Positions 9,458-13,420 of a DNA stretch of 64,000 nt are shown piece after piece (within the stretch, counting starts at the first letter, position 1; each line of letters starts with the position of its first letter). The notes beneath the pieces were generated by a model. That model saw only the letters and a program-made list of their open reading frames with translations. It did no database searches and was not told the DNA's origin. The position numbers and the translations under genes are program-made. Origin of the DNA: Schumannella soli (GTDB taxonomy: Bacteria > Actinomycetota > Actinomycetes > Actinomycetales > Microbacteriaceae); the NCBI RefSeq assembly GCF_006517435.1, contig NZ_VHQG01000004.1, forward strand, positions 248,001 through 312,000. Direction: 5' to 3'.

Positions 9458-11378
9458 AGTCGCGCTGTGCGGGAACGGCCGGCAGCCGCACCGTCACGGT
9501 CGTGCCCGTGCCGACGTCGCTCGCGAGCTCGAGCTCACCGCCGAGAGCCTCGACCCGGTCGACTAGGCCGCGGATGCCGGTGCCGGCATCCAGTGACGCT
9601 CCCCCTCGACCGTTGTCGCGCACCGTCAGCACGAGCGATCCGGCCTCGCCGTCGCCGACGACATCGCGGGTGTCGTCGCTCTCGAGGTGCAGGCGCACCC
9701 ACGCGCGCCGGGCTCCCGAGTGCCGGGCGATGTTGGCCAGGCACTCCGAGGCGACGAAGTACACCGTCGCCTCGACCAGCTCGGCCGGGCGCTCGTCGAC
9801 GAGCACGTCGACCTCGGTCGGAACCGGGCAGCGCGACGCGAGCTCGGGCAGCGCGAGGGCGAGCCCGCCCTCGACCAGCACGGTCGGGTGGATGCCGCGG
9901 GCCAGTTCGCGCAGCTCCTTCAGCGCCGACGACAGCCGGCCGAGCGTCTCCTCGAGCCTCTGCGCCAGCTCGTGCGCGCCCTCCGCACGGGCGGCGGAGA
10001 CGAGCGTGCGCAGCTCCATGGCGAGCGCGACGAGCTGCTGCTGCGAGCCGTCGTGCAGGTCGCGCTCGAGCCGCTTGCGCGCCTCGTCGCCGGCCTCGAC
10101 GATGCGCTGACGCGACTCGCGCACCTGCGAGAGCGTGAGCTCGACCTCGCTGCGCAGCGCGCGGTTGTCGACGCTGAGGCGCAGGGCGGCCGAGACGCCG
10201 TCGAGCAGCCGCTCGTTCTCGGCGAGGGCGCGGTCGTGACGGATCACGGCGATCGGGGTGCCCCCGTCGCCGGAGATCGGCAGCAGCGTGCTCGTCGGCT
10301 CGGCCACATCCAGGTCGACCTCGACCGGGGCGCCGGCGTCGTCGATCCAGCCGCCCGTGCGCTGATCCCACCAGAACACCTCGACGCCCGGATCGCGCAG
10401 CACCGTCGCGAGCGACTCGCGCCAGGCCGCGCGGTCGACGCCGTCGCGGGTGATCATCATGAGGTCGGCGACGCGGCCGCGGGTGTTGCGCAGGTGCACA
10501 CTGCCGGCGATGTAGCAGATCGGCACCGACGCGACCGCGAACAGCGAGACGACCGCGACGGATCCGTCTCCCGTGATCGCGACGACGAAGGCGCCCTTCG
10601 CAGCGCTGTGCATCGCGTAGCTGATCGCCTCGGCGACGAGCGCGGCCGTCCACGCGAAGAGGCCGATCGGCATCACGAAGGCGACGCTGCGGGTCGGCTG
10701 GCTGCCGCGGCTCCACTGCCAGAGCAGCCGGGTCGCGACGAACAGCACGATGACCGCACCGATCACGCGGTAGATCGTGTCGACCGTCGTGAAGGTGCTC
10801 TGGTCGCCGACGAGAGCGTAGGCGTTGCTCACGCACAGGCAGTCGCGGTTCTCGGTCTTGTCGGCGATCAGCACGACCACGGCCCGCACGACCGAGACGC
10901 TCACGCCGAAGCCGACGACCGCCCAGTCGACGACGCCGACGTAGCGGCCCCGCGGATAGGCGAGCGCGATTAGACCGAGCAGCAGCGCCCAGATCAGGTC
11001 GATGCTGCGCAGGATCGGCCAGACGTAGCCGAAGTAGGCGACCACCGCGAAGAAGGTCTGCGGGATCCAGAAGTAGGGGAACAGCGCCATCATGACGATC
11101 GGCAGCCGCCGCTCGCCGAGCTGCAGTCCGACCATGGCCGAGAACGCGAAGACGAACGGCACCGCGGCGTGCAGCGTCACCCACGAGACATCGGGGCGGT
11201 CGAGGGGCGGCGTCGACTGCCAGCCGAGCACCTGCATGACCAGGTTGAGCAGCGGGCCGGCGGCGATGAACACGCCCCAGGCGATCGAGCGGCCGACACC
11301 GAGGCGGCGCGGCGGCGTCGGGCGCACGTCGAGCGGCCGCGGGTGGACGGAGCGCGCGGCCGCCGCCGCCGCGTTCAT
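9456..11378 (-). CDS. NarL-type sensor histidine kinase
   Basis: This 640-residue membrane kinase carries about eight hydrophobic segments in residues 30-295, followed by a region that may fold as a small sensory domain (about 300-385), a coiled coil, and a HisKA_3 dimerisation domain with phospho-acceptor His442 in RDLHDGSQQQ. The C-terminal HATPase domain ends with VRDNGRGG and a G-x-G box (GTGIRGLVDRVEALGG). This domain order pairs with LuxR/NarL-type response regulators, and the regulator gene precedes it with a 4-nt overlap. The signal is unknown. Its position between a possible RiPP locus and an ABC exporter makes cell-envelope or peptide sensing conceivable, but that is inference. Confidence 0.92.
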   Translation of the reverse strand: MNAAAAAARSVHPRPLDVRPTPPRRLGVGRSIAWGVFIAAGPLLNLVMQVLGWQSTPPLDRPDVSWVTLHAAVPFVFAFSAMVGLQLGERRLPIVMMALFPYFWIPQTFFAVVAYFGYVWPILRSIDLIWALLLGLIALAYPRGRYVGVVDWAVVGFGVSVSVVRAVVVLIADKTENRDCLCVSNAYALVGDQSTFTTVDTIYRVIGAVIVLFVATRLLWQWSRGSQPTRSVAFVMPIGLFAWTAALVAEAISYAMHSAAKGAFVVAITGDGSVAVVSLFAVASVPICYIAGSVHLRNTRGRVADLMMITRDGVDRAAWRESLATVLRDPGVEVFWWDQRTGGWIDDAGAPVEVDLDVAEPTSTLLPISGDGGTPIAVIRHDRALAENERLLDGVSAALRLSVDNRALRSEVELTLSQVRESRQRIVEAGDEARKRLERDLHDGSQQQLVALAMELRTLVSAARAEGAHELAQRLEETLGRLSSALKELRELARGIHPTVLVEGGLALALPELASRCPVPTEVDVLVDERPAELVEATVYFVASECLANIARHSGARRAWVRLHLESDDTRDVVGDGEAGSLVLTVRDNGRGGASLDAGTGIRGLVDRVEALGGELELASDVGTGTTVTVRLPAVPAQRD

Positions 11379-12046
11379 CGCGACCCGAGGAAGGCGAGCA
11401 CCGCCAGCACCCGACGGTGGTTGTCGGGCGAGTCGTCGAGGCCGAGCTTCTGCATGATGTTGCGCACGTGCGTCTCGACCGTCTTGACGCCGAGGAACAG
11501 CTGACGCGAGATGCCCGCGTTCGAGTTGCCCTGGGCCATCGCCTCGAGCACGGACAGCTCACGTGCTGTCAGCGTCGACAGCGGGCCGTCGGCGCGCGGC
11601 CGGTTCATGAGCTGCGCCACGACCTCCGGGTCGACGACCGAGCCGCCGCGCGACACCGTCGTGACGGCGGCGACGAGCGTGTGCGGCTCGGAGACGCGCT
11701 CCTTCAGCAGGTAGCCGGTGCCGGCGCCGGCATCCAGCGCACGCATCGCGTACTCGGGCGTCGCGTACATCGACAGCAGCAGCACGCCGATGCGTGAACC
11801 CTGCCGACGCAGGGTCTCGAGGGCGACGATGCCCTCGTCGCGGAACTTCGGCGGCATGCGGATGTCGAGCACCGCCACGTCGATCCCGCCCGACTCGACG
11901 GCCGCGACGAGCTCCTCGCCCGAGCCGACCGAGACGACGACGTCGACTCCGCCGTCGGCGAGCACCTTGCCGATGCCTTCGCGCAACAGCATCGCGTCAT
12001 CGGCGACCGCTGCGCGCAGTCGCGTTCCAGGTGTTGCGTCGGTCAT
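11375..12046 (-). CDS. NarL/FixJ family response regulator
   Basis: This 223-residue DNA-binding response regulator has a receiver domain with acidic pair D16-D17, phospho-acceptor D61 and the conserved Lys in YLLKERV, then a LuxR helix-turn-helix (LTARELSVLEAMAQGNSNAG ... VKTVETHVRNIMQKL). ATG 12046 follows GGAGGT (12056-12061 on the plus strand) with 9-nt spacing. The stop overlaps the kinase start by 4 nt, so the pair is one operon. The gene is transcribed divergently from the small ORF/ATP-grasp pair, so the 12047-12215 region likely carries both promoters and is a natural place for it to bind. Confidence 0.95.
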   Translation of the reverse strand: MTDATPGTRLRAAVADDAMLLREGIGKVLADGGVDVVVSVGSGEELVAAVESGGIDVAVLDIRMPPKFRDEGIVALETLRRQGSRIGVLLLSMYATPEYAMRALDAGAGTGYLLKERVSEPHTLVAAVTTVSRGGSVVDPEVVAQLMNRPRADGPLSTLTARELSVLEAMAQGNSNAGISRQLFLGVKTVETHVRNIMQKLGLDDSPDNHRRVLAVLAFLGSR

Positions 12047-12154
12047 AGCAACCCGACCTCCGATGGGCGGCGGGGCTCCGCCCGAGCGTCCCGATCTCCC
12101 CTCGGGACAGGTTGAGGATACCTAATCAGGGCTTCCCCCGATGAACTGGACAGA

Positions 12155-12204
12155 CCGTTCCGCCAGATTGTGGCTCGGAGCAAGCGCTCCCAGCGACGGA
12201 ACGG
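12155..12204 (+). promoter_or_regulatory. nested inverted repeats in the leader of the ATP-grasp locus
   Basis: CCGTTCCG (12155-12162) pairs perfectly with CGGAACGG (12197-12204). Inside lies a second hairpin GGAGC-aagc-GCTCC (12177-12190). The nested structure ends 12 nt before the small ORF start, so it may be a 5'-UTR fold or a regulator site in the divergent promoter region. Base composition here is less GC-rich than in flanking genes. Confidence 0.5.
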
Positions 12205-12215
12205 GGGTAGAGCGG

Positions 12216-12458
12216 ATGTCGTCCCACATCGCGAAGCTCACCGCCCCCGTCGGCGTGTCGGTCGGCAGCCCCGCGACCGATGCCGACTCCGACACCGTGA
12301 TCCGCTCGACGCGCAACCCGAAGCGCCCTGCGCTGCGCCCGAGCGGGGCGAGGAGTCGTCTCGCCCCCCGTGCGGTTCCCAGCTCGGCCCCGGCGGGCCG
12401 GGAACCGCACGGGTCCCCTCGTCCTCTCGTGGGCATCCGAGGAGAGCTCCGCCTGTGA
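12216..12458 (+). CDS. small ORF coupled to the ATP-grasp gene; candidate RiPP precursor
   Basis: This 80-residue ORF starts at ATG 12216, and its TGA overlaps the GTG start of the ATP-grasp gene by 4 nt, a strong sign of translational coupling. The first about 45 codons use almost only G or C at the third position. The second half does not and contains a large hairpin. The peptide begins MSSHIAKLTAPVGVSVG and has a segment TDADSDTVIRST (residues 21-32) in which Ser/Thr and Asp alternate, as needed for side-chain ester links. It then turns basic and Pro-rich. An in-frame ATG exists at 12141, but the nested hairpins lie after it. This may be a graspetide precursor. No known precursor family is clearly matched. 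Confidence 0.5.
   Translation: MSSHIAKLTAPVGVSVGSPATDADSDTVIRSTRNPKRPALRPSGARSRLAPRAVPSSAPAGREPHGSPRPLVGIRGELRL
12367..12413 (+). terminator. large hairpin between the small ORF and the ATP-grasp gene (attenuator candidate)
   Basis: A perfect 14-bp inverted repeat, CCCGTGCGGTTCCC (12367-12380) with its complement at 12400-12413, encloses a further 5-bp stem (ggccc/gggcc, loop cggc). A pyrimidine-rich stretch follows, then the GAGGAGAG RBS of the ATP-grasp gene. It could partially terminate transcription, giving more small-ORF transcript than ligase transcript, a common arrangement in RiPP operons. It also lies inside the annotated small ORF. Confidence 0.5.
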
Positions 12459-13420
12459 TCCTGCTCGTCGCCCCGCCCGATGACCGTCATGCCGCCGCCG
12501 TCGCCGACCGCCTCCGTGCCCGCGGCGACGAGGTCGCCCTCATCGACGTCGCCAGCCTGACCGCCCAGCTCACCGTCGGCCTCGACTTCGCCCCCGGAAT
12601 CCGCGCCTCCGGCTCCGTGCAGCTGCGCGGCCTCGACGGCTCCACCACCCAGACGATCGACGTCTCCCGCGTCACCGCGGGCTGGTGGCGACGCAGCTGG
12701 ATCCCCCTGCTCGGCGCCGACGACCCCCGCCTCACCGGCGCCCCCGTCGACTTCGGCGAAGCGCTGGTCTCGACCGCCGAGGCCCTCGACATCGCCTGGG
12801 CCAACGAGCCCGTCGCCGTCGACCTGGCGCAGCGCCGCACCCGCCTGTGGGCGGCCGCCCGGCGCGCCGGCCTGATCATGCCGCACACGATCGTCACCCG
12901 CGACCCGGGCGCCGCGCACCGCTTCGCGAAGCAGCACCTGCGCACCGGCGTCATCTGCCGTCCGCTCGTGAAGTCGCACGCGGAGTGGCCCGCGCAGGAC
13001 CGCATCGTGGGCGTCTCGGCGATCGACGAGCTCGTCGAGCAGAGCGGCCCCGACCTGGTGCTGCGCGCCTTCGTGCCCGGCTCCGACGTGCGCGCCTTCG
13101 TCGCCGGAGACCGCGTGCTCGCCGCCGATCTCGGCGCGGCCGCGGCCTCCGACTCCGATGCACCGTTCCCCGCGGTGCCGGACTGCGCTCGGGCCGTCGA
13201 CCTGCCCGACGACATCCGCGACGGACTGATCGCGCTCGTCGCCGACCTCGGGCTCGGCCACGCCGCCGTCGACCTGCGCCGCACCCGCGCCGGCGAGCAC
13301 CTCTTCCTCGACCTCGACCCGCTCGCCGAATGGCTCGACGTCGAAGCCGCGACGGGACTGCCGCTCACCGAGTCCCTCGTCGACGAGCTGGTCGCCCGCT
13401 CCGCCTCGCGCGTCGCCTGA
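12455..13420 (+). CDS. ATP-grasp ligase of RimK/MvdD (graspetide synthetase) type
   Basis: The GTG at 12455 follows GAGGAGAG (12439-12446) and gives 321 residues, the size of ATP-grasp RiPP maturases. The N-terminal domain has WWRR (77-80), comparable to the W/Y-RR of MvdD-like enzymes. The ATP-grasp core has ICRPL (167-171), a segment at 204-215 ending DVRAF, AVDLR (271-275), LFLDLDP (283-289) and WLDVEAATGLP (293-303), the last diagnostic of this group. The usual catalytic Lys (VKPL) is Arg here, and the usual E-x-N metal ligands read D-x-D. It probably couples a carboxylate to a hydroxyl or amine using ATP, with the upstream small ORF as possible substrate. A free-peptide or metabolite ligase role is the alternative. 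Confidence 0.75.
   Translation: MILLVAPPDDRHAAAVADRLRARGDEVALIDVASLTAQLTVGLDFAPGIRASGSVQLRGLDGSTTQTIDVSRVTAGWWRRSWIPLLGADDPRLTGAPVDFGEALVSTAEALDIAWANEPVAVDLAQRRTRLWAAARRAGLIMPHTIVTRDPGAAHRFAKQHLRTGVICRPLVKSHAEWPAQDRIVGVSAIDELVEQSGPDLVLRAFVPGSDVRAFVAGDRVLAADLGAAAASDSDAPFPAVPDCARAVDLPDDIRDGLIALVADLGLGHAAVDLRRTRAGEHLFLDLDPLAEWLDVEAATGLPLTESLVDELVARSASRVA

What the first reader, a model, noticed from the sequence alone, without database searches (positions are those of the whole stretch)
12216..13420. Possible new graspetide (ATP-grasp RiPP) locus: 80-aa ORF translationally coupled to an MvdD-like ligase
Seen: a small ORF with strong GC3 bias in its first 45 codons ends in a GTGA overlap with a 321-aa ATP-grasp gene. 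The ligase has WWRR near residue 78 and WLDVEAATGLP near the C-terminus, features of MvdD/graspetide synthetases (known for that family). The ORF contains TDADSDTVIRST, alternating hydroxyl and acidic side chains suited to ester cross-links. Inferred: the ORF is the precursor. The precursor does not match the common actinobacterial GRASP-target pattern that I know, so it could be a new class.
Basis: partly seen in the sequence, partly recalled or inferred. Interest (0 to 1): 0.75.

Follow-up and report, generated by a model that had tools for sequence, protein, structure and literature searches.

The report
Orphan graspetide-type ligase without a precursor
The enzyme gene is a genuine relative of the ligases that tie peptides into rings, but the small reading frame before it does not evolve like a protein and is very probably not its peptide substrate, so the proposed new peptide class is not supported.

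Summary
The sequence features are real. An 80-codon frame (12216-12458 +) with first-45-codon GC3 of 0.96 ends in a GTGA overlap with a 321-aa ATP-grasp gene (12455-13420 +). The ligase belongs with graspetide synthetases: TIGR04187 E 2.5e-32; best solved relatives are MvdD-like, MdnB/C, CdnC and PsnB-type chains. The precursor claim fails its own refutation test. Across the three congeneric genomes that keep the frame, substitutions fall least at codon position 3; pN/pS is 1.27 (0.87-2.0) for the distant pair and 6 non-synonymous to 0 synonymous for the close pair. Graspetide-like precursor frames in the same family give 0.09-0.30. No homologue occurs elsewhere, even in the two further congeners that keep the ligase. 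The TGA overlap is forced because codon 2 of the ligase is Ile (ATC). The region instead looks like a conserved leader with a 13-bp hairpin found once per genome. The ligase is under purifying selection and forms a clade with a second genus in which the metal motif ExNP is DxDP. Its sister ligases lie next to metalloproteases with Lys/Glu-repeat tails, the likely ancestral substrate type; Schumannella has no such protease. Best reading: an orphan, catalytically altered graspetide-synthetase relative, substrate unknown.

The parts
12455..13420 (+). Orphan graspetide-synthetase-like ATP-grasp gene (321 aa, GTG start), between a response-regulator gene (-) and purH (-)
   Evidence: TIGR04187 2.5e-32, MvdC 7.8e-21, MvdD 5.8e-16; PDB 9bou, 5ig8, 7m4s, 5ig9, 7mgv, 7drm; pN/pS 0.29 against the nearest congener; present in all 5 held genomes of the genus
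12216..12458 (+). 80-codon open frame proposed as precursor; judged not a conserved protein-coding gene
   Evidence: Substitutions at codon positions 1/2/3 are 28/32/21 (L001-L004) and 1/5/0 (L001-L003); pN/pS 1.27 and >1; no homologue elsewhere
12057..12456 (.). Slowly evolving intergenic/leader region between the response-regulator gene and the ligase (96-99% identity per 100 nt to the nearest congener, flanks mostly 85-96%)
   Evidence: Identity profile; alignment
12368..12412 (+). 13-bp hairpin (arms 12368-12380 and 12400-12412), 42 nt before the ligase start
   Evidence: Predicted fold; found once in each of G000, G001, G002, always here, control pattern 0; arms kept while the loop diverges, outer pair C-G to G-C
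12345..12367 (+). 8-bp hairpin GGGGCGAG/CTCGCCCC just before the large one; not kept in the third species
   Evidence: 4 of 8 pairs broken in L004
12177..12190 (+). 5-bp stem GGAGC/GCTCC upstream of the ORF start, with one compensatory G-C to A-U change
11375..12046 (-). LuxR-type response-regulator gene, divergent from the ligase; neighbour shared by the congeners
   Evidence: Translations and N-terminal alignment

Best explanation
The ligase is an orphan: a relative of graspetide synthetases kept by selection in Schumannella but no longer next to a recognisable substrate. The DNA between it and the divergent response-regulator gene is non-coding. It carries promoter and leader sequence and a 13-bp hairpin that most likely tunes transcription or translation of the ligase (inferred). 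The 80-aa frame is a by-product of 71% GC DNA, and its terminal TGA follows automatically from the ligase's Ile2 codon. The enzyme most likely still uses ATP to activate a carboxylate and join it to an amine or hydroxyl of a substrate encoded elsewhere, with an Asp-x-Asp metal site in place of Glu-x-Asn (inferred). Shown: family kinship, purifying selection, the residue changes, lack of constraint on the ORF. Not shown: any catalytic activity, the substrate, the hairpin's role.
For: ORF frame shows no protein constraint: pN/pS 1.27 (95% 0.87-2.0) L001-L004 and 6 non-synonymous to 0 synonymous L001-L003, with position 3 the least changed. Controls in the same family: graspetide-like precursor frames of L013-L015 give 0.09, 0.29 and 0.30. 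ORF protein search of 400 family genomes finds only the orthologous DNA in G001 and G002; G003 and G004 keep the ligase but give no hit; no hit in Pfam, NCBIfam, PHROGs or plasmids. No GRASP_targ precursor over cut-off in the genome. Ligase pN/pS 0.29 (0.20-0.42). D-x-D in all 8 clade members against E/D-x-N in all 21 other aligned ligases, RimK-like ones included, and in the 8 further ligases; clade support 95/97. Hairpin once per genome at this place in three species, loop diverged, outer pair compensated. Upstream DNA 96-99% identical per 100 nt while the ligase is 76-95%.
Against: The ORF's first 45 codons have GC3 of 0.96 (0.87 in L004), a coding-like signal met by only 1.4% of comparable frames. 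Start (ATG/GTG/ATG), open frame and in-frame indels are kept in three species, and L004 has a strong Shine-Dalgarno GGGGAGG. Only three usable sequences exist, two of them near-identical, so selection estimates are coarse, and a fast-diversifying core peptide could raise pN/pS. Covariation in the hairpin rests on one changed pair; shuffles reach the overall score in 55 of 500.
Confidence: 0.74

Rival explanations
1. The ORF is a real graspetide precursor whose core diversifies fast; the ligase cross-links Thr/Ser with Asp in TDADSDTVIRST.
For: GC3 signal, kept start and open frame, adjacency to a graspetide-type ligase; acid and hydroxyl residues in L001.
Against: A precursor keeps its leader; here N- and C-parts alike lack constraint. 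L004 replaces TDADSDTVIRST by VGVETDTAHLPS. There is no P-h-h-x-h or RPFG-type recognition motif shared by the versions, whereas leader motifs are conserved per ligase branch (PMC8939145, PMC13003496). No ORF homologue was found in the congeners G003 and G004, which keep the ligase.
Confidence: 0.08
2. The ORF is the decayed remnant of a former precursor or other coding sequence; GC3 periodicity is a fossil.
For: GC3 signal without selection on the protein; sister ligases have substrate genes directly upstream, L110 and L111 overlapping the ligase start.
Against: No sequence similarity to the sister substrates (astacin-tail proteins), and no astacin or M43 gene in the genus. The DNA is conserved better than the coding flanks between the close pair, which is not decay.
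Confidence: 0.1
3. The ligase really starts upstream: the ligase reading frame stays open and codes for a basic N-terminal extension.
For: The ligase frame has the lowest pN/pS of the open frames: 0.68 (0.46-0.94) L001-L004, and 5 of 5 changes synonymous L001-L003.
Against: The only possible start in L001 (GTG 12170) lies upstream of a 1-nt indel and is GTC in L004. All homologues begin at MIL-V. Wobble-position GC in that frame is low (ORF position 2, 0.64-0.72). One of six frames tested.
Confidence: 0.07
4. The true precursor is on the minus strand, where the translation holds RFGLRVERI, resembling the PFxLR / RPFG leader of actinobacterial precursors.
For: The motif is visible in L001 and L003; the frame shares the GC3 phase with the ORF.
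Against: Motif and frame are not kept in L004, which has a stop there; pN/pS 0.9-1.38; no start codon near the motif.
Confidence: 0.03

Closest known systems
Actinobacterial graspetide synthetases, TIGR04187 (GRASP_SAV_5884), with TIGR04186 GRASP_targ precursors
   Same: Best NCBIfam family over the full length (E 2.5e-32); GWWRR and DLRR motifs
   Different: 112 bits against a cut-off of 350; no GRASP_targ precursor over cut-off; DxDP for ExNP, ATP-site Lys to Arg, hinge Gln to Arg
Microviridin ligases MdnB/MdnC (MvdC/MvdD), PsnB, CdnC (PDB 5ig8, 5ig9, 7m4s, 7drm, 7mgv) and 9bou
   Same: Only solved relatives at strong scores; full-length alignment
   Different: Those aligned keep Glu-x-Asn; the named ones act on small adjacent precursors with a conserved leader (own knowledge; PMC8939145)
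Sister ligases next to proteases with Lys/Glu or Thr/Asp repeat tails (L010, L039, L110, L111 and others)
   Same: Nearest relatives in tree and search
   Different: They keep ExNP and a substrate-like gene directly upstream; Schumannella has lost or never had it
Graspetide ATP-grasp branches 7 and 8 of Makarova et al. 2022 (PMC8939145)
   Same: Graspetide-type ATP-grasps for which no precursor could be predicted
   Different: Membership not tested; those loci carry peptidase genes, this one does not

Membership tests
Graspetide synthetase (MvdD/SAV_5884-type ATP-grasp) | Full-length sequence kinship with characterised synthetases, apart from RimK-type ligases | tested here: met
   9bou 5.7e-36 against the best RimK-like chain 8.1e-11
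Graspetide synthetase (MvdD/SAV_5884-type ATP-grasp) | Curated score of TIGR04187 (350 bits), MvdC (425) or MvdD (475) | tested here: not met
   112, 74.5 and 58.6 bits. The order-level relatives found also stay below 350, so the cut-off is strict.
Graspetide synthetase (MvdD/SAV_5884-type ATP-grasp) | Canonical ATP-grasp metal ligands (E-x-N) and ATP-binding Lys | tested here: not met
   D-x-D and Arg in L001, L003, L004
Graspetide biosynthetic locus | Precursor gene with conserved leader and core of paired nucleophile and acid residues | tested here: not met
   ORF unconstrained; no homologue; no GRASP_targ over cut-off. A precursor elsewhere in the genome was not excluded.
Graspetide biosynthetic locus | ATP-dependent side-chain macrocyclisation | not testable with these tools
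   Needs co-expression and mass spectrometry
RimK-like / metabolite ATP-grasp ligases | Clusters with RimK-type sequences | tested here: not met
   RimK-like rows of the same genomes fall outside with 100/100 support

The most novel reading that the evidence does not exclude
The D-x-D ligases of Schumannella and one other Microbacteriaceae genus are a descendant clade of protease-tail graspetide synthetases that lost the substrate gene, changed the metal and ATP sites, and took on a new substrate encoded elsewhere or a non-catalytic role under selection.
Probability: 0.35. Interest if true: 0.5.

Novelty: new variant of a known kind. Interest (0 to 1): 0.3.

Why it matters
It removes a plausible but false precursor from the list of new peptide classes. 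It also shows a cheap test: pN/pS of the candidate frame against precursor frames of the same family, plus the check that an NTG-A start forces the overlap. What remains is an orphan ligase clade with an altered metal site, useful for asking how a ring-forming enzyme loses or changes its substrate. The sister loci suggest where part of the precursor-less ligases may find their substrate: in the tails of neighbouring proteases.

Tried and rejected
Antisense precursor with RFGLR (rejected: not kept in L004). N-terminal extension of the ligase (weak selection signal, no conserved start). Known RNA family in the leader (no Rfam match above gathering score). Consensus promoter or terminator in 12040-12470 (none). 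Precursor in the small region after the ligase (identity drops with indels, no conserved frame). Substrate in trans of the astacin or M43 kind (absent in the genus). RPFG/PFxL-type motifs elsewhere in the window with paired cores (none convincing). GRASP_targ family search of the genome (7 hits, all below cut-off; controls also ring). No structure was predicted: the rule admits only window and the search for related loci sequences, which would give two rows, and the family was already clear by sequence.

Full report
OBSERVATION. The ORF (12216-12458 +, 80 aa) and the ATP-grasp gene (12455-13420 +, 321 aa, GTG) exist as described, with a GTGA overlap, GWWRR at residues 76-80 and WLDVEAATGLP at 293-303. 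The GC3 bias is real: 0.96 in the first 45 codons, then 0.69. Its weight is moderate. The window is 71% GC and holds 234 ORFs of 80 aa or more; 7.3% of comparable RTGA stops end an ORF of this length, and 1.4% also show the same GC3 signal. The overlap itself is not evidence of coupling. The ligase starts NTG-ATC, and Ile2 is kept in all six aligned members, so a TGA in the +1 frame is forced.

THE LIGASE. NCBIfam gives TIGR04187 (2.5e-32), MvdC (7.8e-21) and MvdD (5.8e-16), all below the curated cut-offs. Among solved structures the profile finds 9bou, 5ig8, 7m4s, 5ig9, 7mgv and 7drm first and RimK-like chains far below. In a 27-row tree the RimK-like ligases of these genomes fall outside with full support. 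The gene occurs in all five held genomes of the genus; where examined it follows a divergent response-regulator gene. In the window purH (-) lies on its other side. Selection holds it: pN/pS 0.29 (0.20-0.42) against the nearest congener and 0.65 (0.51-0.81) against the next.

THE ORF. Three genomes keep the frame: L001 (window), L003 (GTG start) and L004. In the ORF frame the changes between L001 and L003 are 6 non-synonymous and 0 synonymous; between L001 and L004 pN/pS is 1.27 (0.87-2.0). Changes by codon position are 1/5/0 and 28/32/21; in the ligase they are 23/14/64 and 79/59/101, as expected of a protein. As a positive control, the graspetide-like frames next to related ligases in L013-L015 give 0.09, 0.29 and 0.30. 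A search of 400 family genomes with the ORF protein returns only the orthologous DNA of G001 and G002; the other hits are weak and many contain stops, and G003 and G004, which keep the ligase, give none. Two cautions apply: only three sequences, two of them close, and the GC3 signal remains unexplained.

WHAT THE REGION IS INSTEAD. From 12057 to 12456 the close pair is 96-99% identical per 100 nt, while flanking genes are mostly 85-96%. A 13-bp hairpin (12368-12412) lies 42 nt before the ligase start. The exact palindrome occurs once in each of G000, G001 and G002, always here, and not in G003 or G004, with a reversed control at zero. Its arms are kept while the loop changes, and the outermost pair changes from C-G to G-C. 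That covariation is one event and is not strong by itself (55 of 500 shuffles reach the overall score). The best ORF-protein similarity between L001 and L004 (RLAPRAVP...GREPH) coincides with the arms. I read this as a regulatory leader, inferred rather than shown. No Rfam family or consensus terminator matches.

THE CLADE. At conserved ATP-grasp positions the window ligase departs from its relatives: ATP-site Lys to Arg, hinge Gln to Arg, metal motif E-x-N to D-x-D. D-x-D is shared by all five Schumannella ligases and three of another Microbacteriaceae genus, and by none of the other 21 aligned ligases, nor the eight added later. The eight form one clade (95/97), sister to ligases L010 and L039. 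The two D-x-D groups have different coupled frames: 80-aa type in Schumannella, 14-16 aa in the other genus, and one of the short ones (MHAPIPAAVSGTAA) has no Asp, Glu or Lys, so the short frames cannot all be substrates.

THE SISTERS. Directly upstream of L010, L039, L085, L087, L088, L110 and L111 is an astacin-like protease, of L011 (and by its tail a second locus in L076) an M43-like protease, and of L086 a trypsin-like protease (Pfam for five of them; the rest by sequence). Each carries a C-terminal tail of repeated Lys plus Glu/Asp, or Thr/Ser plus Asp, and most have a PF(V/A/L)(L/I) motif behind it. Makarova et al. 2022 found no precursors for two ligase branches that associate with peptidases (PMC8939145). 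A leader with the RPFG motif still works when moved behind the core (PMC13003496). My inference is that these tails are the substrates. Schumannella has neither astacin nor M43 genes and no homologue of the L073 protein, so its ligase is an orphan.

VERDICT. Ligase family: supported. Precursor and new class: not supported. Mechanism of the orphan: ATP-dependent ligation with a changed metal site on an unknown substrate is the most likely; a non-catalytic role is possible.

Noticed in passing
L073:3626-4942, L072:3323-4687, L075, L076, and upstream of the ligases in L085, L086, L087, L088, L110, L111: Zinc or trypsin-like proteases with C-terminal Lys-Glu/Asp or Thr/Ser-Asp repeat tails, most followed by a PF(V/A/L)(L/I) motif, sit directly before graspetide-type ligases. 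They look like graspetide substrates fused behind a protease with a natural C-terminal recognition motif, and may answer why some ligase branches show peptidases but no precursor (PMC8939145). No paper in the held library joins ATP-grasp, astacin and RiPP.
   Followed up: partly
L013, L014, L015 (upstream of the ligase): Two small frames per locus before the ligase, e.g. MDTSTSLFGLLAVDTQR...IETSDHGFG and MQTREAPASLFAELA...TATITETIESSDTDEAV, both under purifying selection (pN/pS 0.09-0.30): likely a two-precursor graspetide system.
   Followed up: partly
window 12216-12455: The ligase reading frame upstream of the start has pN/pS 0.68 (0.46-0.94) and 5 of 5 synonymous changes in the close pair, without a conserved start codon. 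Unexplained.
   Followed up: partly
window 12057-12456: Intergenic DNA more conserved between L001 and L003 than most of the coding flanks; could be regulation or local recombination.
   Followed up: partly
L065 (G082), L066 (G424), L071 (G440): D-x-D ligases of the second genus follow a 14-16 codon frame with a good Shine-Dalgarno and overlap or abut an HAD-like phosphatase frame downstream.
   Followed up: no
L112, L113, L114, L117: Ligases in another family follow a short frame MxxIRIDDIAAAGPELDEGDLRLVNGG...DxDF, a small conserved precursor-like peptide.
   Followed up: no
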